From NCBI GenBank assembly GCA_027482225.1, contig JAIXWD010000016.1, positions 268,050-332,049 of the forward strand: DNA of 64,000 bases. The letters run 5' to 3'. Both the position numbers and the translations under genes were made by a program. Source of the DNA: Bacteroidota bacterium (GTDB taxonomy: Bacteria; Bacteroidota; Bacteroidia; UKL13-3). Below the pieces are notes generated by a model that searched no databases, was not told the origin of the DNA, and saw only the letters and a list, made by a program, of their open reading frames with translations. Positions 2,495-33,408 of the stretch are shown in pieces; the stretch's first letter is position 1; each line of letters opens with the position of its first letter.

Positions 2495-3106
2495 TTAGAA
2501 TAATCCGTTTATCTCAGCATCAATTTTACTAATAATTGCACCTAAATCTTCTGGTTTATCAGCAAAATTTAAATTGTCTACATCAATAATCAATAACTTG
2601 TGTTTGTAGTTGCTAATCCAGGCCTCGTAACGTTCATTTAAACGTCTAAGATAATCAAGCCTGATACTGTCTTCATAATCTCTTCCGCGTTTTTGTATGT
2701 TAGTTACTAAGCTTGGTATAGATGCACGTAAGTATACCAATAAATCAGGTGCTTTTACTGTTTGACTTAACGACTCGAACATTTTTTGATAGGTTTCGAA
2801 ATCACGTGTACTCATCAAGCCCATACTATGTAAGTTGGGTGCAAAAATAAAAGCATCTTCGTAGATGGTTCTATCTTGTATAACCTTTTTCTTACCTTTT
2901 TGTAATTGAAGCAAGGTATTGTAACGGCTATTCAGGAAATAAATCTGAAGGTTGAATGCCCAACGCTGCATGTCTTCGTAAAAATCACTGATGTATGGGT
3001 TGTCTTCAACATCCTCATAATGTGGCTCAAATTTATAATGACGAGAGAGTAGGGTAGTTAAAGTTGTTTTCCCAGATCCAATATTTCCGGCAATAGCTAA
3101 ATGCAT
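2495..3106 (-). CDS. Deoxynucleoside kinase (dNK family), copy 1
   Basis: This enzyme phosphorylates deoxynucleosides in the salvage pathway. The 203-aa protein has the dNK P-loop (GNIGSGKTTL, residues 7-16), a substrate-site acidic segment (YEDVEDNPYI), the DRTIYEDAFIF motif with the catalytic E/D-R pair, and the arginine-rich lid (QKRGRDYE). Substrate preference among dA, dG and dC cannot be read from this. A second, diverged copy lies at 32749-33408. The gene stands alone, convergent with gldC and separated from the metal cluster by 158 bp that also holds a short GC-rich hairpin (about 3206-3240). Confidence 0.92.
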   Translation of the reverse strand: MHLAIAGNIGSGKTTLTTLLSRHYKFEPHYEDVEDNPYISDFYEDMQRWAFNLQIYFLNSRYNTLLQLQKGKKKVIQDRTIYEDAFIFAPNLHSMGLMSTRDFETYQKMFESLSQTVKAPDLLVYLRASIPSLVTNIQKRGRDYEDSIRLDYLRRLNERYEAWISNYKHKLLIIDVDNLNFADKPEDLGAIISKIDAEINGLF

Positions 3107-7575: not shown

Positions 7576-7782
7576 CTATTTGTGCATTTTATGCTTTATC
7601 ACTCTCGCTCGTTCACGTTCTTCTGGAGTTTGAATTTTACTTAACAGCACATTGGTGTCCCAAATCCATTGCAAGCGTTCTTGAATACTCCATTTTTGAT
7701 ATGCTTCAATTTGCTCTGGGGTTACAGTATAGTGGTAACCTTTATCGGCATTTTCAAGTTTGGGTTTGATGGTATCTGTCAT
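7576..7782 (-). CDS. Small hypothetical protein paired with the nucleotidyltransferase
   Basis: This 68-aa, highly charged protein has no signal or membrane segment. The sequence is mainly helical, with a WSIQERLQWIWDTNVLLSK segment and a TPEERERARVIKHK tail. Its ATG overlaps the stop of the upstream nucleotidyltransferase gene by four bases (ATGA), a strong sign of translational coupling. I recognise the general look (RLQWL/IWD helix, small, downstream of a DUF6036/AbiEii-like nucleotidyltransferase) but cannot name a family. A role as the partner of the enzyme is inferred from coupling alone. Confidence 0.7.
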   Translation of the reverse strand: MTDTIKPKLENADKGYHYTVTPEQIEAYQKWSIQERLQWIWDTNVLLSKIQTPEERERARVIKHKMHK

Positions 7783-8261
7783 TTTTTTATTTGCGATAAA
7801 AGGTAAATATCATCCTGGTCTTGTTTGCGGTTACTATATTCCTTTAACTTAATCAAGTCGTTTATAGATACAATATGGATATCTATTTCATCTGCTGTTC
7901 GGGTGGTTTTTCTTTCCCACATATCAGCGAAGTTTAAAGGCACATCAATTAAAACATCCATACTCATAACATTACCTCTTGTGTTAAAATAGGATAGTGC
8001 AATAAGATTCTTTTCTTTGACAAGTTTTATACGTTCTTGTTGTGTTGAAAGCAAACTTAGTGATACTGGAATTTGAGATTGGTAAAAAGCATTCACCACA
8101 CAAATTTCAAACTTCTTTAAGTTGTCTTTATCAAAATCTAAAATCAAATCAATGTCTGCCGTCATCCTTGGAATACCGTAAATATTAACGGCTAAACCAC
8201 CACACAGTAAATATTTTACTTGATGTTTATGTAATTGCTCAAATATTCCAAGATAATCCAT
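7779..8261 (-). CDS. Nucleotidyltransferase-fold protein (DUF6036/AbiEii-like)
   Basis: This is a 160-aa protein of the polymerase-beta-like nucleotidyltransferase superfamily. The GG motif is present (LLCGGLAVNIYGIPR, about residues 18-32), followed by TADIDLILDF, whose DxD pair would bind the metal. A third conserved region is HIVSINDLIKLKEYSNRKQD followed by QDDIYLL. This pattern is shared by DUF6036 and by AbiEii-type toxins. It overlaps the small downstream gene by four bases and ends the pyrR-pyrB run (5 bp after pyrB). It could be half of a toxin-antitoxin pair or a housekeeping enzyme, and the sequence does not settle which. Confidence 0.75.
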   Translation of the reverse strand: MDYLGIFEQLHKHQVKYLLCGGLAVNIYGIPRMTADIDLILDFDKDNLKKFEICVVNAFYQSQIPVSLSLLSTQQERIKLVKEKNLIALSYFNTRGNVMSMDVLIDVPLNFADMWERKTTRTADEIDIHIVSINDLIKLKEYSNRKQDQDDIYLLSQIKK

Positions 8262-10393: not shown

Positions 10394-12196
10394 TTAGTCT
10401 TTTTTCTCTAATTGAGCTTTCAATGCAGCAAAGCCTTCAACATCAGCGAAAGTTGATTTCTCATTACTATCGTTTAGTTTTTTAGCAGCTTTGGTTGCTT
10501 TGTCTTTATCGTCTGTACGTTTTTTCTCGTCAGCCTTTTTCTCTTCAATAGCATCAGCTTTCCAAAGAGCGGTATGAGAAACAACAATACGTTTGTTTTC
10601 TTTGTTAAACTCAGTTACTTTAAAGTCAACTACTTCGTCTTCTTTAACGGTAGTTTTATCTTCGCGTTGTAATTGCTTGATAGGAGCATATCCTTCTACA
10701 CCATATGGTAAAGCGATAGTAGCACTTTTATCTTCAATTTTTAACACAGTACCTTCGTGAACAGAACCAACAGTAAATATGGTTTCAAAAGTATCCCAAG
10801 GGTTTTCGTCAAGTTGTTTATGACCTAAGCTTAATCTACGGTTTTCTAAATCAACTTCTAATACCATTACGTCTAACTCTTGATCTTTCTTCACGAACTC
10901 AGCAGGATGTTTGATTTTCTTGGTCCAGCTTAAGTCACTTACGTGAACTAAACCATCAACACCTTCTTCTAATTCAACAAATAAACCGTAGTTAGTCATG
11001 TTACGCACAACACCTTTGTGGCGCGAACCTACAGGGTATCTTTCGTTAATATTCACCCAAGGATCAGCTTTTAATTGCTTTATACCAAGAGACATTTTAC
11101 GTTCTTCTTTTTCTAGCGTTAAAATAACTGCTTCTACTTCGTCACCCAATTTCATGAAATCTTGAGGTGAGCGTAAGTGTTGACTCCAGCTCATTTCACT
11201 AACGTGGATTAAGCCTTCAACACCAGGAGCTATTTCAAGGAATGCACCGTAATCTGCGATGTTTACGATTTTACCTTTAACGTTAGCACCTACAACTAAA
11301 GTGTCTGCTAAACTATCCCAAGGATGAGAAGAAAGTTGCTTCAAGCCAAGGCTGATACGTTTTTTCTCATCATCAAAGTCAAGCACAACAATGTTGATTT
11401 TTTGATCCATTTTCAATACCTCTTCTGGATGGTTAATACGTCCCCATGAGATATCTGTAATATGTAATAAACCATCAACACCACCTAAATCAATAAACAC
11501 ACCAAATGAAGTCATGTTTTTAACAGTACCTTCTAAAACTTGGCCTTTTTCTAATTTAGATAGGATGTCTGATTTTTGTTTTTCAATATCCTCTTCAATT
11601 AACACCTTGTGAGAAATTACCACGTTTTTAAATTGGTGATTAACTTTTACCACTTTAAATGGCATTGTTTGACCAACATAAACATCGTAATCTTTAATTG
11701 GCTTAGTGTCGATTTGTGAACCTGGTAAAAACGTATCTATACCGAATAACTCTACAACTAAACCACCTTTTGTGCGAGATTTAACGAAACCATTAACAAT
11801 TTCATCACTTTCAAAGCACTTCATGATGTTGTCCCATGCGCGTTCGCTCATGGCTTTTTTGCGTGATAACACAAGTTGACCTAATGCATCTTCTTTGTTT
11901 TCAAGCAAAACTTCTACTACATCGCCTACTTTTAATTCCGGCATGTCGCGAAATTCTGTTTTGGCAATCAAACCATCTGATTTGAAGCCAATGTTAAGTA
12001 CCACTTCTTTTTCGGTAAAACCTACAACGGTACCTTTAACAATTTCTTTCTCAGCAATAGTGCTAAGTGTTTGTTCGTAAAGACTTTCAAGAGTTGCTCT
12101 CTCATCTTTAGAATAGTTGCCGAAACCGGCTTTGTCCATGCTCCAGTCAAAGTCTGAGCTTGGTGTTTCGAATTGAATGTTGTTGTTTTTTGTCAA
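10394..12196 (-). CDS. rpsA: 30S ribosomal protein S1
   Basis: S1 binds mRNA and helps it load on the small ribosomal subunit. The 600-aa protein has six S1/OB repeats, each opening with a G-x-V-type strand: IVKGTVVGFTEKEVVLNIGF, IVNGFVKSRTKGG, VLEGTVKNMTSFGVFIDLGG, NVKGKIVNIADYGAFLEI, RHKGVVRNMTNYGLFVELEE and VHEGTVLKIEDKSATIAL. A Lys/Glu-rich tail follows. I place the start at a TTG (12196-12194, MTKNNNIQFET). A strong AAAGGAG lies upstream, and the promoter lies just before that, so the in-frame TTG at 12232 would fall within the -7 element. Bacteroidota genes rarely show such a ribosome-binding site. Confidence 0.93.
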   Translation of the reverse strand: MTKNNNIQFETPSSDFDWSMDKAGFGNYSKDERATLESLYEQTLSTIAEKEIVKGTVVGFTEKEVVLNIGFKSDGLIAKTEFRDMPELKVGDVVEVLLENKEDALGQLVLSRKKAMSERAWDNIMKCFESDEIVNGFVKSRTKGGLVVELFGIDTFLPGSQIDTKPIKDYDVYVGQTMPFKVVKVNHQFKNVVISHKVLIEEDIEKQKSDILSKLEKGQVLEGTVKNMTSFGVFIDLGGVDGLLHITDISWGRINHPEEVLKMDQKINIVVLDFDDEKKRISLGLKQLSSHPWDSLADTLVVGANVKGKIVNIADYGAFLEIAPGVEGLIHVSEMSWSQHLRSPQDFMKLGDEVEAVILTLEKEERKMSLGIKQLKADPWVNINERYPVGSRHKGVVRNMTNYGLFVELEEGVDGLVHVSDLSWTKKIKHPAEFVKKDQELDVMVLEVDLENRRLSLGHKQLDENPWDTFETIFTVGSVHEGTVLKIEDKSATIALPYGVEGYAPIKQLQREDKTTVKEDEVVDFKVTEFNKENKRIVVSHTALWKADAIEEKKADEKKRTDDKDKATKAAKKLNDSNEKSTFADVEGFAALKAQLEKKD

Positions 12197-12206
12197 TGAA
12201 TTAATT

Positions 12207-12213
12207 CTCCTTT
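12207..12213 (-). promoter_or_regulatory. Shine-Dalgarno sequence of rpsA
   Basis: AAAGGAG on the minus strand ends 10 bases before the TTG start of rpsA. It decides the start codon and is notable because most genes in this window have no such site. Confidence 0.7.
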
Positions 12214-12229
12214 CGCTTAAAAAAGCGTA

Positions 12230-12259
12230 CAAAGGTAATGAAATTATATATATAGCAAA
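12230..12259 (-). promoter_or_regulatory. rpsA: rpsA promoter
   Basis: On the minus strand, TTTG (12259-12256), 18 bp, then TACCTTTG (12237-12230) matches the Bacteroidota -33/-7 consensus. Transcription would start about 25 bases before the TTG start codon. Confidence 0.75.
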
Positions 12260-12287: not shown

Positions 12288-14021
12288 TTACATGCTGTCT
12301 ATTGGCGTGTATGTATAAATACCTTTGCGCCATTTTACATTGCCTTCAGGTATCCAAGATTGATTTATAAGTTGCTGGTGGTAATCTTTTTGATAAGTGG
12401 AAGGGAAATGATAGGTGCGTTTTAATATGGCAAAATCTAAACTATCGGTTTTGATGTTGTTTTTATTAGCCCACAACCAAATTGATTTTTCAAGTTCTTT
12501 TGGGTTTGGAATGGTACCGCTGCAAACTGAGTTAAATGTATATTTACTCCAAGCTAAGTTCATATTCATATTCATGCAATAACCAGTAGCATTGAAAAAG
12601 GGTAACCATAAGGTGTCTCCATTTGGTTGTTTTTGTAAAACTGCAAATACTGTTTTAGAACCGCTTAGGCTATGGTCTAAAAATACACCACGGGCATTCA
12701 AACCAAATAAAGTTCTAAATAAATTGGATGGTTTAAGGCTGTAATCTGAAATATCTTTTCTAACAGCATAAAACTTCTTGAGTTCTACTGTTGTTACTCC
12801 GCCTTTTATACGTGAGTAAAAATGATAACTGCTGTAAAAAGTTTGCACAGACAACAAACCAAAACAAAAAATGCCCAACACCCCATATCTTATTTTTTCG
12901 CTTATGATGGGTTGTGGCGATTGTTCTGGATTTTGCAGTTTAATAACTTCATCCAATATAAAATCGATAATTAAACGAAACAATTCGATGTGAATAAAGA
13001 GTGCTATTAGCTTTCCTACTAAAGTAGATTTTAAAACAGCGCTCGCTGCTAACCAATTGTTATCGTATTCGGTTTGATTGATGATAATATTTTTTAGGGT
13101 ATGATGATGAACAACAGTATTGTTATTTAACCCCGAAATTAACCTGGCCAAAGCAATTTGTTTTGGGTTATTTGGGTTGATGGTTATTTCAACCGAACTC
13201 ATTTTAAACTTCTGCCAAAACTTGTCGTTTACAAAAAGCAGGTAAAATGGAATAGGACCAAAACATAATAAAGGGAAGGGGAAAATACTGGCAATAATCA
13301 AATGAAAAAAAACACCAATCCACGCAGCATAGTGTCTTATTTTTTTGAAGAATAATGCGAATATCAATCCAAATTCCCAAGCCATTGTGAGGTAATTGGC
13401 AATGATATGCGCCCATTTCCAATTTAAGTAAAAAGTTAAACCATGCCATTTATTATGAGGCATTACAGATGGAATCCAAAGTCCTAAACCTTTATTCCAC
13501 ATGGGTGAATAGATTTTCGTAAGGCTGCTTGCCCAATACATTAAACCCAAAGAAACAAATAGTGCTGCTAAATAATTCCAGTATGATGTTTGAGATGATG
13601 GTCGTTGCCCATATTTAATGGTATGTAATACATGATCTATACTGTAGCTTTGTTTGGCAGGCATGATAATTAGTAAAAAACTACCTATGCGCATCAGATC
13701 GTCATTAAATGATCCACATCCTGAATTGCTAAATGTAAAAGCAGTAATTACTACAAATAAGTAATTGATAAAGGCCACAATTCTTGTTTGCCACCCAATC
13801 ATCAAAATAAAAACTACTAAGGCCCATATGCTTAAAAAAAGTTTTGCAGGAAAAGGATTTAAAGCAATGTGTGGAATGGTATTATAGATAATAGGGCGGT
13901 AGTAATAAATACTTGAAATTAGCACAAGTAAAAACAACGAAAATGTAATGCGGAAAAAGGCAAAACCTACTGTGCTTACAGGAAAGTCATATTTTTTAAG
14001 CCAATTAATTATGCGGTTCAT
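12288..14021 (-). CDS. HTTM domain membrane protein in the exosortase operon
   Basis: This 577-aa integral membrane protein has many hydrophobic segments in the first 400 residues (for example FRITFSLFLLVLISSIYYY and LFLSIWALVVFILMIGW), followed by a hydrophilic C-terminal part (about 420-577). The N-terminal half resembles HTTM, the domain shared with vitamin K-dependent gamma-carboxylases; the SNSGCGSFNDDLMRIGSFLL and FFHLIIASIFPFPLL stretches fit. Its start overlaps the upstream exosortase-associated gene by 17 bp, so it is the last gene of that operon. A role in modifying or handling the exosortase substrate is a guess from position. Confidence 0.75.
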   Translation of the reverse strand: MNRIINWLKKYDFPVSTVGFAFFRITFSLFLLVLISSIYYYRPIIYNTIPHIALNPFPAKLFLSIWALVVFILMIGWQTRIVAFINYLFVVITAFTFSNSGCGSFNDDLMRIGSFLLIIMPAKQSYSIDHVLHTIKYGQRPSSQTSYWNYLAALFVSLGLMYWASSLTKIYSPMWNKGLGLWIPSVMPHNKWHGLTFYLNWKWAHIIANYLTMAWEFGLIFALFFKKIRHYAAWIGVFFHLIIASIFPFPLLCFGPIPFYLLFVNDKFWQKFKMSSVEITINPNNPKQIALARLISGLNNNTVVHHHTLKNIIINQTEYDNNWLAASAVLKSTLVGKLIALFIHIELFRLIIDFILDEVIKLQNPEQSPQPIISEKIRYGVLGIFCFGLLSVQTFYSSYHFYSRIKGGVTTVELKKFYAVRKDISDYSLKPSNLFRTLFGLNARGVFLDHSLSGSKTVFAVLQKQPNGDTLWLPFFNATGYCMNMNMNLAWSKYTFNSVCSGTIPNPKELEKSIWLWANKNNIKTDSLDFAILKRTYHFPSTYQKDYHQQLINQSWIPEGNVKWRKGIYTYTPIDSM

Positions 14022-14454
14022 CTTTTGATTGTAATTGAGTAATGGTAAATGCGGCCCATAAAAATAAGGTTATAATGGGTGAATGCAAATAGCGATTAAC
14101 TTTTGAAACCAAAACATGATCGATGGTTGTAGATTGTATGAATATTGACGCATATAACAATACCATTATCGCAATGTGAAGTATTAATGTGAACTTGGTA
14201 AGGTTTTTTTGTTTAAATGCAAAGTGAATTAAAAGGGTAGGTAATCCAACAAAACATAAACTATAGATAAACGCTTTAATCCAAAAAAATCCGTGGGTAA
14301 TTAATGTAGCCAATCGATTTGTTGTTAAAACGTTAGGTGATAAAAATATTGCCTCTGGAGTATTTCGGTAGTCGGGCGATATTTCATCTTTTAATAAGCT
14401 GAGCATCAAAATTAACAAAAAAACTACTGCGGCATACCATTTATTAGTTTTCAT
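14005..14454 (-). CDS. Exosortase F system-associated protein
   Basis: This 149-aa membrane protein has four hydrophobic segments (AAVVFLLILMLSLL, FFWIKAFIYSLCFVGLPTLL, LILHIAIMVLLYASIF, IITLFLWAAFTI). Recognisable pieces are NRLATLITHGFFWIKAFIYS and SKVNRYLHSPIITLFLWAA, which match my memory of the small protein that follows XrtF exosortases in Bacteroidota. It overlaps the exosortase gene by 11 bp upstream and the HTTM gene by 17 bp downstream, so all three are tightly coupled. Its molecular role is unknown. Confidence 0.78.
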   Translation of the reverse strand: MKTNKWYAAVVFLLILMLSLLKDEISPDYRNTPEAIFLSPNVLTTNRLATLITHGFFWIKAFIYSLCFVGLPTLLIHFAFKQKNLTKFTLILHIAIMVLLYASIFIQSTTIDHVLVSKVNRYLHSPIITLFLWAAFTITQLQSKDEPHN

Positions 14455-14992
14455 GGGTAGCTTGAAGTTTAGATTGTTTGGCGGCCCACCACATCCAAAG
14501 CATAAAGATGATTCCGTAAACTAAAAAAATAAATATATACCTATGGAAAAGATCGAAGTATGGTGATTTAGCCTCTGCCATCAGTGTAAGAATGAAATTA
14601 CGCATGATGTTTACAACATGTATTAATACACAACCTATTGGTATAAACCATAATTTAGACTTGAAGTTGCTAGGATAACAAATGATAAAAATACTAAACA
14701 AAATGAGAAGTTCTAATCCGTTACAAGATGCGCCAACTCTTATAAGTGGGAAAGTACTTGTATTCAGAAAAATAAATGTTTCCCCAAGTTTCTCTGCAAT
14801 ACTGAAGTGGGGATAAAATCCAAGGTAATCTAATCCTAAACAAATAAAGTAGGATATGTTTTCGGTAATGATGTGGTCGGGTTGACCATTAGATTTTAAA
14901 AAAAATTCGTATGAAAGTAGCCAAACTCCGTATAATAAAAATGATTGGAGTAAGAATTTAACTAGTTTTTTATTTAGCCCCATCAATTTCAT
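14444..14992 (-). CDS. Exosortase family protein (XrtF type)
   Basis: This is a membrane transpeptidase-like enzyme that would process proteins with a C-terminal sorting tail at the inner membrane. The 182-aa protein carries all three exosortase catalytic residues in order. The Cys is in VGASCNGLELL (about residue 90), the Arg in VVNIMRNFILTL (about 131) and the His in FDLFHRYIFIF (about 150), each within or next to a hydrophobic helix. The short length and the C-N-G-L-E-L-L motif fit the compact Bacteroidota XrtF group. It lies 15 bp after the small candidate substrate gene and overlaps the next gene. Confidence 0.85.
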   Translation of the reverse strand: MKLMGLNKKLVKFLLQSFLLYGVWLLSYEFFLKSNGQPDHIITENISYFICLGLDYLGFYPHFSIAEKLGETFIFLNTSTFPLIRVGASCNGLELLILFSIFIICYPSNFKSKLWFIPIGCVLIHVVNIMRNFILTLMAEAKSPYFDLFHRYIFIFLVYGIIFMLWMWWAAKQSKLQATHEN

Positions 14993-15007
14993 ATTAGGCT
15001 TTGTCGT

Positions 15008-15208
15008 TTATTTTTTGCGACCGTATAGTTTTTTAATACCTAAGCCTATACCTGCAGTGGTTAATAAAGCTATTGCCCCATTAATGGGAACATCATCTAT
15101 CTCTTCAAAAATAGTAGATGATGCAGGCGCATTTGGCTGGGCAATTACAATTGATGCAATAGACACGAACACAAATAGCATGGACAATAGTTTAAAAATC
15201 TTACTCAC
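15008..15208 (-). CDS. Candidate exosortase substrate: 66-aa protein with PID-CTERM-like tail
   Basis: This is a 66-aa secreted protein. A signal peptide (MSKIFKLLSMLFVFVSIASI, ending near VIA-Q at residue 24) is followed by only about 18 polar residues. It then ends in a sorting-tail layout: short motif DVPINGAIA, a glycine-containing hydrophobic helix (LLTTAGIGLGI), and a basic end (KKLYGRKK). This resembles the P-I-D/N-G motif of PID-CTERM proteins. It is encoded immediately upstream of the exosortase, on the same strand, 15 bp away. The start codon is GTG (15208). The mature product would be tiny, so it could be a peptide, a structural subunit or an anchor for modification. Confidence 0.75.
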   Translation of the reverse strand: MSKIFKLLSMLFVFVSIASIVIAQPNAPASSTIFEEIDDVPINGAIALLTTAGIGLGIKKLYGRKK

Positions 15209-15313: not shown

Positions 15314-16237
15314 TTAGTTTCTCCAGCCTCTTAACAAATCCTCTGTTTTCATTCTTTTTTTGCCTTGTAGTTGAACATCAATGGCGTATATCCAACCGTC
15401 ATCCACTGCAAACCTTATATATGGATTTTTACCCGAGTTAGTTTGAATTGTTCCTGATTTTTCTTGATGCTGCGATGATTCAAATGTGCAATGGTATATT
15501 TTCAAGATTTGCTCGTTAATTTTTGTATATGCTCCTGGGTAAGGACTTAATCCACGAACATGATTAAAAACCTGCGCTCCTTTTTGTGCCCAATTAATTA
15601 AACAATGTTCTGTAAATATCTTAGGTGCAAACTTGCCATTAGGTTCTTTCTGTGGTGTTGGAGTGTAATTTCCATTTTCTACAGCTGCAACTGTTTTTAC
15701 AATTAAATCAGCACCAACTTTCATCAACATGTCATGCAGTTCACCCACCGTCATTTCTGGCAAAATTGCTACTTCTTGTTGATGTATAAGGTCACCTGTA
15801 TCAATTTCATGTTTAAGCAAAAATGTACTCACACCTGTTTTGGTTTCTCCATTTATAATCGCCCAATTAATTGGCGCTGCGCCTCGGTAATCTGGCAACA
15901 AGGACGCATGAAGGTTAATAGTTCCTAATCGTGGCATATTCCAAACTAATTCAGGTAACATTCTGAATGCAATCACCACTTGTAAATCGGCATGATAGCT
16001 TTTCAGTTCATCAATAAATTCAGGGGCTTTTAATTTTGTAGGTTGTAAAACCGGAATATGATGAGATACTGCAAACTTTTTAATAGGTGATTCTTGTAAT
16101 TGCATGCCTCTTCCTGCTGGTTTGTCAGGAGCGGTTACAACAGCCACGATATGAACGCCCGAATCAACCAACGCTTTTAGTGGTGTAACTGCAAAATCGG
16201 GTGTGCCTAAAAATATAACGCGCAATGGACTGTTCAT
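15314..16237 (-). CDS. fmt: Methionyl-tRNA formyltransferase
   Basis: Transfers a formyl group from 10-formyl-THF to Met-tRNA(fMet) for translation initiation. The 307-aa protein has the N-terminal formyltransferase domain (about 1-190). Its motif includes NLHASLLPDYRGAAPINWAI, with the catalytic N-H and the SLLPxxRG folate signature, followed by GETKTGVSTFLL. A smaller C-terminal OB-like domain follows (about 205-300, RGLSPYPGAYTKI). The start at MNSPLRVIFLGTPDFAV is clear. The ccmB-like gene lies 15 bp upstream on the same strand. Confidence 0.96.
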   Translation of the reverse strand: MNSPLRVIFLGTPDFAVTPLKALVDSGVHIVAVVTAPDKPAGRGMQLQESPIKKFAVSHHIPVLQPTKLKAPEFIDELKSYHADLQVVIAFRMLPELVWNMPRLGTINLHASLLPDYRGAAPINWAIINGETKTGVSTFLLKHEIDTGDLIHQQEVAILPEMTVGELHDMLMKVGADLIVKTVAAVENGNYTPTPQKEPNGKFAPKIFTEHCLINWAQKGAQVFNHVRGLSPYPGAYTKINEQILKIYHCTFESSQHQEKSGTIQTNSGKNPYIRFAVDDGWIYAIDVQLQGKKRMKTEDLLRGWRN

Positions 16238-32748: not shown

Positions 32749-33408
32749 CTAGCTATTTATATCCAAGAAACTAACGTGATGTATTCCAGGAGCGTATTCT
32801 TTACAAAAAAGATTCACCAAACTTTGGTAATGTTCAATGTTGTTAACAAAATCAATAGATGTGCAATCAACCAATAAAATGCGTAAATGTGTATTTTGAT
32901 GCAGATACTGTAAATAGGCATCACTTAATGATTGAAGGTATTCATCCTCAATTTTTTGTTCGTAACTTCTGCCTCTGTTTAAAATATTCCACTGTAATTT
33001 TTCAATGGGGTTGTGCAGGTAAACCAATAAATCGGGCTGACGCATTTGTTGATTAATGATTTCGAATAACCTCAAGTATAGGTCGTATTCATCATCATCA
33101 AGGTTTATTTTAGAAAATAACAGGCACTTTGCAAAAATATAATCACTTACCAAGTATTGTTGAAATAGATCTGGTTCTAGCAGTTGTTTTTTAAGTTGAT
33201 TAAAGCGAGCAGCCAAAAAACTCATTTCTAAGGGAAATGCAAACCTACGTGCATCGTTATAAAATTTGGGTAAAAATGAATTGTCTTCAAATTCTTCTAA
33301 AATCAACTTGGCATTAAATTCTTTACTCAGCATGGTTGCTAAAGAAGTTTTTCCAGCTCCGATGTTGCCTTCAATCGCTATAAATTCATATACTGGTTTT
33401 ACTGCCAT
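32749..33408 (-). CDS. Deoxynucleoside kinase (dNK family), copy 2
   Basis: This 219-aa dNK-family kinase has the P-loop GNIGAGKTSLA (about residues 14-24), the acidic substrate segment LEEFEDNSFLPKFYND, the SDYIFAKCLLFSKINL stretch replacing DRTIYED of copy 1, and the lid NRGRSYE. The arginine of the usual D-R motif appears as Y (SDY), so substrate handling may differ from copy 1 (2495-3106). It follows folK by 36 bp on the same strand, a frequent arrangement in Bacteroidota. Confidence 0.9.
   Translation of the reverse strand: MAVKPVYEFIAIEGNIGAGKTSLATMLSKEFNAKLILEEFEDNSFLPKFYNDARRFAFPLEMSFLAARFNQLKKQLLEPDLFQQYLVSDYIFAKCLLFSKINLDDDEYDLYLRLFEIINQQMRQPDLLVYLHNPIEKLQWNILNRGRSYEQKIEDEYLQSLSDAYLQYLHQNTHLRILLVDCTSIDFVNNIEHYQSLVNLFCKEYAPGIHHVSFLDINS

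What the first reader, a model, noticed from the sequence alone, without database searches (positions are those of the whole stretch)
12288..15208. Compact exosortase F operon with a near-minimal substrate and an HTTM protein
Four genes on one strand with overlaps or a 15-bp gap encode a 66-aa protein that is little more than signal peptide plus a P-I-N-G sorting tail, an XrtF-type exosortase with C/R/H residues in order, its associated membrane protein, and a large HTTM membrane protein. A dedicated, tiny substrate next to its processing enzyme suggests the product is a peptide, surface scaffold or carrier for a modification. The HTTM protein, coupled by a 17-bp overlap, resembles gamma-carboxylase-like enzymes and could carry out a modification step. 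The operon order is not one I know to be described.
Basis: partly seen in the sequence, partly recalled or inferred. Interest (0 to 1): 0.6.

Follow-up and report, generated by a model that had tools for sequence, protein, structure and literature searches.

The report
Exosortase-X-like operon with carboxylase-fold partner
A conserved four-gene cluster in Bacteroidota makes a tiny exported protein, the membrane enzyme that probably cuts and anchors it, and a membrane protein shaped like the human vitamin-K carboxylase but lacking its glutamate-binding residues; that last partner turns up beside this class of sorting enzyme again and again, which points to an undescribed surface-modification step.

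Summary
In detail: four minus-strand genes at 12288-15208, overlapping or 15 bp apart, all under purifying selection. The interpretation needs changes. (1) The exosortase is closest to XrtX, not XrtF (152.6 bits against a cut-off of 170, versus 80.8 against 90), so it is XrtX-like and under both curated cut-offs. (2) The 66-aa protein is a PID-CTERM variant; tiny single substrates beside XrtX are the rule in the class, not a peculiarity. (3) The order small-xrt-assoc-HTTM, between fmt and rpsA, is conserved in three genera of one family. (4) New: HTTM genes recur at XrtX loci in other families, as a DUF5819+HTTM pair (16 of 53 hits within 10 kb, 0.29 expected); two HTTM lineages joined XrtX independently. 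(5) The HTTM protein has the fold of human gamma-glutamyl carboxylase (Z 21.9) and the equivalent of catalytic Lys218, but not the Glu-pocket Asn159/His160. Most linked peptides lack Glu, and this genome shows no VKOR, so glutamate carboxylation is unlikely. Best explanation: XrtX-like cleavage and anchoring of a roughly 20-aa peptide at the inner membrane, with HTTM as an accessory, probably quinol-using, enzyme acting on the peptide or its acceptor. The sorting part is well supported; the HTTM step is inference.

The parts
15008..15208 (-). 66-aa PID-CTERM-like small protein (signal peptide about 1-24, segment PNAPASSTIFEEIDDV, PING motif, TM helix, basic tail)
   Evidence: (NF046080 22.8 bits, cut-off 26)
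14444..14992 (-). XrtX-like exosortase, 182 aa, C90/R131/H150 invariant
14005..14454 (-). XrtX-associated membrane protein, 149 aa, four long helices; no known fold match
   Evidence: (NF046082 weak, 23.4 bits)
12288..14021 (-). HTTM protein with GGCX-like fold, 577 aa: HTTM membrane domain (about 1-272), degenerate DCC1-like domain (about 275-360), TM helix (375-405), C-terminal domain
   Evidence: (PF05090 30.2 bits, cut-off 27.7)
13515..13517 (-). codon of Lys169 of the HTTM protein, aligned with catalytic base Lys218 of human GGCX (position computed from the gene start)
   Evidence: role of K218 from PMC12589487
15314..16237 (-). fmt (methionyl-tRNA formyltransferase), conserved upstream flank, not part of the system
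10394..12232 (-). rpsA (30S ribosomal protein S1), conserved downstream flank, not part of the system

Best explanation
This is an XrtX-like exosortase / PID-CTERM surface-anchoring module with a recruited GGCX-fold accessory enzyme. The 66-aa protein is exported by Sec and its signal peptide removed near ...VIAQ|PNAP; it stays held in the inner membrane by its tail, with about 20 residues outside. The exosortase (Cys90 nucleophile, Arg131, His150) cuts near PING and hands the peptide to an acceptor, probably a lipid or polysaccharide carrier. The XrtX-associated protein is a partner subunit. The HTTM protein acts at the outer face of the same membrane as an accessory enzyme. It keeps the lysine that in GGCX deprotonates the quinol but not the glutamate pocket, so it probably carries out a quinol-dependent reaction other than Glu carboxylation, on the peptide or on its acceptor. 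Shown: gene order, conservation, co-occurrence, predicted fold, residue pattern. Inferred: export, cleavage and anchoring (from the exosortase/archaeosortase family), the acceptor, and the HTTM reaction.
For: Family matches. Invariant C/R/H. small-xrt-assoc is the core module in most XrtX loci of many families. PID-CTERM is found almost only with an exosortase. The operon with HTTM is intact in 10 genomes of three genera (named carriers). HTTM orthologues lie only at the XrtX operon among 58 relatives, contig breaks and one divergent hit apart. The HTTM-XrtX link recurs in other families: 16 of 53 hits within 10 kb against 0.29 expected, and co-occurrence of the short form has odds ratio 18. 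HTTM tree: two separate XrtX-linked lineages. GGCX fold. K218 equivalent in 23 of 23 XrtX-linked HTTM rows. Literature: xrtF and its partner gene are each needed for biofilm and surface colonization in F. johnsoniae (PMC10936215); the archaeosortase neighbour genes pssA/pssD are needed for the lipid-anchoring step (PMC7157517).
Against: The exosortase, the small protein and the associated protein are each below their curated NCBIfam cut-offs, and the tree does not settle whether the window clade sits with XrtX or XrtF. G003 keeps xrt-assoc-HTTM but shows no small gene between fmt and xrt. HTTM is missing from most XrtX loci, so it is accessory. Short HTTM genes also occur away from XrtX, and a few genomes have them without XrtX. 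No cleavage site, acceptor or HTTM product has been shown.
Confidence: 0.6

Rival explanations
1. The HTTM protein is a true gamma-glutamyl carboxylase that carboxylates the EEIDD acidic patch of the small protein before or after sorting.
For: GGCX fold over both domains, K218 equivalent kept, an acidic FEE patch conserved before the PING/PIDG motif in the window's genus.
Against: N159/H160 Glu-pocket residues are in 8 of 8 canonical bacterial carboxylases and 0 of 23 XrtX-linked HTTM proteins. Mature peptides linked to HTTM in g9, f5, f6, f9, f24, f64, f73 and f75 contain no Glu. No VKOR match in the genome.
Confidence: 0.08
2. The HTTM protein (in other families the DUF5819+HTTM pair) works like SdpA/SdpB of Bacillus: a maturation complex that helps turn the small preprotein into a released peptide signal or toxin, with the exosortase making one of the cuts.
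For: Paired, overlapping DUF5819 and HTTM genes; a weak SdpB match of one short HTTM (18 bits); SdpA/SdpB-type proteins sit with a signal-peptide-bearing precursor in sdpABC and yitPOM (PMC6818787).
Against: The SdpB score is far below the cut-off of 178 and the window protein matches no NCBIfam model. The hydrophobic segment here is the sorting tail, which an exosortase should discard. No immunity-like gene was recognised in the operon.
Confidence: 0.15
3. The HTTM protein serves the acceptor, not the peptide: it modifies a surface polysaccharide or its carrier lipid to which the exosortase joins the peptide. (A sub-case of the best explanation.)
For: The closest relatives of the window HTTM protein sit inside polysaccharide biosynthesis clusters with DegT-type aminotransferases, acyltransferases and glycosyltransferases (L148-L151). 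XrtX loci often adjoin Wzc-like, Wzm-like and Wzt-like genes. The own genome has Wza-type export proteins.
Against: No polysaccharide gene seen in the 64-kb window. No direct evidence of a saccharide acceptor. EPS-linked relatives keep a DCC1-like CxxC that the window protein lost.
Confidence: 0.3
4. Co-location is only inherited gene order (an old glyA/fah/relA-region neighbourhood) with no functional tie.
For: Unlinked short HTTM genes often lie near glyA, a fumarylacetoacetase-like gene and relA, as do some XrtX loci. Eight of the 16 close cases are from one family, f9.
Against: A second, distant HTTM lineage joined XrtX in the window's family, in a different neighbourhood and as an overlapping operon. 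Genome-level co-occurrence holds also where the genes are unlinked.
Confidence: 0.2

Closest known systems
Exosortase X / PID-CTERM system (NCBIfam NF046081, NF046080, NF046082)
   Same: Same three-gene core (small PID-CTERM protein, exosortase, associated membrane protein), one tiny substrate, C-R-H residues
   Different: All three proteins are below the curated cut-offs; the substrate has lost the CWPPPC motif common elsewhere; an overlapping fourth HTTM gene
Exosortase F system of Flavobacterium (TIGR04128, TIGR04127; xrtF and partner, PMC10936215)
   Same: Exosortase plus small associated membrane protein, Bacteroidota; deletion phenotype in biofilm and colonization
   Different: The window protein scores lower for XrtF than for XrtX and is below the XrtF cut-off; no HTTM seen at the two XrtF loci examined here (L060, L069)
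Vitamin K-dependent gamma-glutamyl carboxylase (human GGCX; bacterial homologues with PF05090 + PF22777)
   Same: Fold of membrane and outer domains (Z 21.9, rmsd 3.6 over 299 residues), Lys218, Phe286 and His287 equivalents
   Different: No Asn159/His160 Glu pocket; extra degenerate DCC1-like domain; no VKOR match in the genome
SdpA/SdpB peptide maturation pair (sdpABC, yitPOM)
   Same: HTTM-family membrane protein beside an exported precursor; in other families paired with a small DUF5819 protein
   Different: No NCBIfam SdpA/SdpB match for the window protein; an exosortase and a sorting tail are present

Membership tests
Exosortase/archaeosortase superfamily (TIGR04178) | profile score above cut-off (23 bits) | tested here: met
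   55 bits
Exosortase/archaeosortase superfamily (TIGR04178) | conserved Cys, Arg, His in order | tested here: met
   C90, R131, H150 invariant in 19 sequences
Exosortase/archaeosortase superfamily (TIGR04178) | cleavage or transfer of a C-terminal sorting tail | not testable with these tools
   needs an experiment
Exosortase X (NF046081) | curated score of 170 bits | tested here: not met
   152.6 bits; sister-genus protein of G016 reaches 170.1
Exosortase X (NF046081) | gene next to a PID-CTERM small protein and the associated membrane protein | tested here: met
   the neighbours' own scores are below their cut-offs
Exosortase F (TIGR04128) | curated score of 90 bits | tested here: not met
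   80.8 bits
PID-CTERM (NF046080) | curated score of 26 bits | tested here: not met
   22.8 bits over all 25 positions, PIN for PID
PID-CTERM (NF046080) | three-part tail (motif, TM helix, basic end) at the C terminus of an exported protein beside an exosortase | tested here: met
   sequence
HTTM domain (PF05090) | gathering score of 27.7 bits | tested here: met
   30.2 bits
Gamma-glutamyl carboxylase | GGCX fold | tested here: met
   Foldseek E 1.5e-6, VIA Z 21.9; model pLDDT 73.7
Gamma-glutamyl carboxylase | catalytic base Lys218 | tested here: met
   K169 of the window protein, 23 of 23 linked rows
Gamma-glutamyl carboxylase | Glu-pocket Asn159/His160 | tested here: not met
   0 of 23 linked rows, 8 of 8 canonical rows
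Gamma-glutamyl carboxylase | Glu-containing substrate | tested here: inconclusive
   Glu present in the window's genus, absent from most other linked peptides
SdpB (TIGR04033) | curated score of 178.4 bits | tested here: not met
   no match for the window protein; 18.3 bits for a short HTTM of L120

The most novel reading that the evidence does not exclude
XrtX-type exosortases use a GGCX-fold, quinol-dependent membrane enzyme, recruited at least twice (as a fused HTTM protein in this family, as a DUF5819+HTTM pair elsewhere), to make an undescribed chemical modification of the sorted peptide or of its membrane acceptor.
Probability: 0.3. Interest if true: 0.78.

Novelty: new variant of a known kind. 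Interest (0 to 1): 0.52.

Why it matters
To my knowledge, what exosortases attach their substrates to in Gram-negative bacteria is still open. For archaeosortases, gene neighbours (PssA/PssD) led to the lipid-anchoring step. HTTM, a repeated neighbour of XrtX with a fold of known chemistry, is a comparable lead, in a system with one tiny substrate per genome whose mature peptide should be tractable by mass spectrometry. It would also give a function to HTTM proteins that keep the quinol-activating lysine but are not glutamate carboxylases.

Tried and rejected
XrtF label: rejected on scores. Gamma-carboxylation of the peptide: disfavoured. Disulfide chemistry on CWPPPC as the HTTM job: considered, but the window's lineage keeps HTTM and has no Cys in the peptide. 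A direct search of the HTTM profile against PDB chain sequences found nothing; the link to GGCX came from fold search and from canonical bacterial carboxylases. Fold search of the associated protein (pLDDT 92) gave no trustworthy match (best Z 8.0 to a designed helical bundle). Literature: no paper held mentions PID-CTERM or exosortase X in the relevant sense, and none joins DUF5819, HTTM and SdpB. Two region fetches failed on size and were repeated smaller. The Haft 2012 paper was not held. A Bacteroidota-type promoter was looked for by eye upstream of the small gene without a clear site.

Full report
OBSERVATION. The four ORFs, their strand, gap and overlaps are as described: small 15208-15008, exosortase 14992-14444, associated membrane protein 14454-14005, HTTM 14021-12288, flanked upstream by fmt (15314-16237) and downstream by rpsA (10394-12232). 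All four genes are under purifying selection against congeners (dN/dS 0.06-0.23 where dS is measurable), including the 66-codon one. The start of the small gene is GTG; the G008 homologue (L040) has MSKLLK at the same place.

WHAT THE PARTS ARE. NCBIfam places the exosortase closest to XrtX (152.6 bits; cut-off 170), well ahead of XrtF (80.8; cut-off 90); it is safely in the exosortase/archaeosortase superfamily (55 bits; cut-off 23). C90, R131 and H150 are invariant in 19 aligned sequences. A tree puts the window protein in a firm clade of four genera of its own family (100/98), but whether that clade sits with XrtX or XrtF is not resolved (85/91). The small protein matches PID-CTERM over all 25 positions at 22.8 bits (cut-off 26), PIN replacing PID. 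The associated protein is a divergent XrtX-associated membrane protein (23.4 bits, cut-off 75), recovered with its homologues by iterated profiles. Its model (pLDDT 92) shows four long helices and has no convincing relative among solved structures.

THE TINY SUBSTRATE IS THE RULE. PID-CTERM has one match in this genome. In 197 genomes of the class, 86 have matches above the cut-off, mostly one per genome and nearly all in ORFs of about 60-100 aa, often beside the exosortase. The only two PID-CTERM genomes without an exosortase-family hit have sub-cut-off matches. In many other families the mature part ends in CWPPPC directly before PIDGG; the window's family has lost both cysteines.

THE FOUR-GENE ORDER IS CONSERVED. 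fmt-small-xrt-assoc-HTTM-rpsA, or the part of it held on the contig, occurs across the window's genus and in two further genera of the family (g9, g11): small-xrt-assoc-HTTM is uninterrupted in 10 genomes (the window's included), interrupted by contig ends in two (G005, G007), and without a small gene in G003. Named carriers are environmental Bacteroidota assemblies, including the complete genome of Bacteroidetes bacterium UKL13-3. In 58 relatives every full-length HTTM orthologue lies at this operon, allowing for the contig breaks.

HTTM RECURS AT XrtX LOCI. With a profile of XrtX-linked HTTM proteins, 127 of 396 class genomes have hits. Leaving out the window's family operon, 16 of 53 listed hits in XrtX-bearing genomes lie within 10 kb of XrtX; 0.29 are expected. 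They come from six family labels (f5, f6, f9, f24, f64, f73), eight of them from f9, so the binomial P overstates independence. The profile contained two such neighbours (L049, L054), a mild bias; an unbiased Pfam search also finds those two. A seventh case, L118 (f75), has HTTM on the opposite strand between xrt and assoc. Genomes with the short HTTM form carry XrtX of at least 140 bits in 41 of 48 cases against 126 of 396 overall (odds ratio 18), whereas canonical carboxylase-like HTTM proteins give 2.5; neither figure is corrected for phylogeny. The short form is paired with an overlapping DUF5819 gene, both at XrtX loci and elsewhere.

TWO ORIGINS. In an HTTM tree the long proteins of the window's operon form one clade (98/94) whose sister group (100/99 for the pair) is a set of long HTTM-DCC1 proteins inside polysaccharide gene clusters of other families (L148-L151). 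The short XrtX-linked proteins lie in a different clade (96/97). HTTM was thus drawn to XrtX at least twice. Some EPS-cluster relatives keep the DCC1-like CxxC (PF04134 E 1e-11 in L148; CxxC in L149 and L151); the window protein has INPNNPKQ in its place.

FOLD AND ACTIVE SITE. The HTTM model (pLDDT 73.7, moderate) matches human GGCX and, at comparable strength, nothing else: Foldseek E 1.5e-6, VIA Z 21.9 with rmsd 3.6 over 299 residues, next unrelated Z 7.2. Profile comparison with eight canonical bacterial carboxylases gives probability 98.4, E 1e-14. Mapping through a canonical protein to human GGCX, Lys218, Phe286 and His287 equivalents are kept (Lys and His in all 23 linked rows, Phe in 20), while Asn159 and His160 are in all 8 canonical and none of the 23 linked proteins. 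Lys218 is the base that deprotonates vitamin K hydroquinone, and Asn159/His160 hold the substrate glutamate (PMC12589487). No VKOR profile match was found in this genome. So the fold and the quinol-activating lysine are there; glutamate recognition is not.

MECHANISM. Shown: gene order, selection, co-occurrence, residues, predicted fold. Following the exosortase/archaeosortase family: export, cleavage at the tail and transfer to a membrane acceptor (archaeosortase ArtA with PssA/PssD lipid anchoring, PMC7157517; xrtF and its partner gene needed for biofilm and surface colonization, PMC10936215). Inferred: the HTTM protein acts on the peptide or on its acceptor. The kinship with EPS-cluster HTTM proteins and the polysaccharide genes near many XrtX loci (Wzc-like in 18 families, Wzm-like and Wzt-like in 10 each, labels read from sequence, not from profile searches) favour the acceptor; the SdpA/SdpB analogy (PMC6818787) favours the peptide. 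I cannot decide between them.

VERDICT. A real, conserved operon of a known kind (XrtX-like/PID-CTERM) carrying a new accessory. The new element is the repeated HTTM-XrtX link with a GGCX fold minus its glutamate site. I found no description of it in the papers held.

Noticed in passing
L049, L051-L055, L114, L119, L120, L122, L125, L126, L128, L129, L140-L147 (small proteins): The hexapeptide CWPPPC stands directly before the PID motif in PID-CTERM small proteins of twelve family labels, in a mature peptide of only about 15-25 residues; its role is unknown.
   Followed up: partly
L148:8822-10723, L149:7376-11161, L150:8397-10265, L151:2657-4636: Long HTTM proteins with a DCC1-like domain sit inside polysaccharide biosynthesis clusters, once as a tandem pair (L149) and once split into two ORFs (L151).
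   Followed up: partly
L160-L179: DUF5819 + HTTM gene pairs, overlapping, occur away from XrtX, often near glyA, a fumarylacetoacetase-like gene and relA.
   Followed up: partly
L034 (G003): xrt-assoc-HTTM are kept but no small gene lies between fmt and xrt; the best PID-CTERM hit of that genome elsewhere is weak (C334, E 0.04).
   Followed up: no
window 2495-3106 and 32749-33408 (minus): Two deoxynucleoside-kinase-like ORFs in one window (read from sequence only).
   Followed up: no
window 7779-8261 (minus): Short nucleotidyltransferase-like ORF (MDYLGIFEQLHKHQVKYLLCGGLAVNIYG), possibly AbiEii-like; read from sequence only.
   Followed up: no
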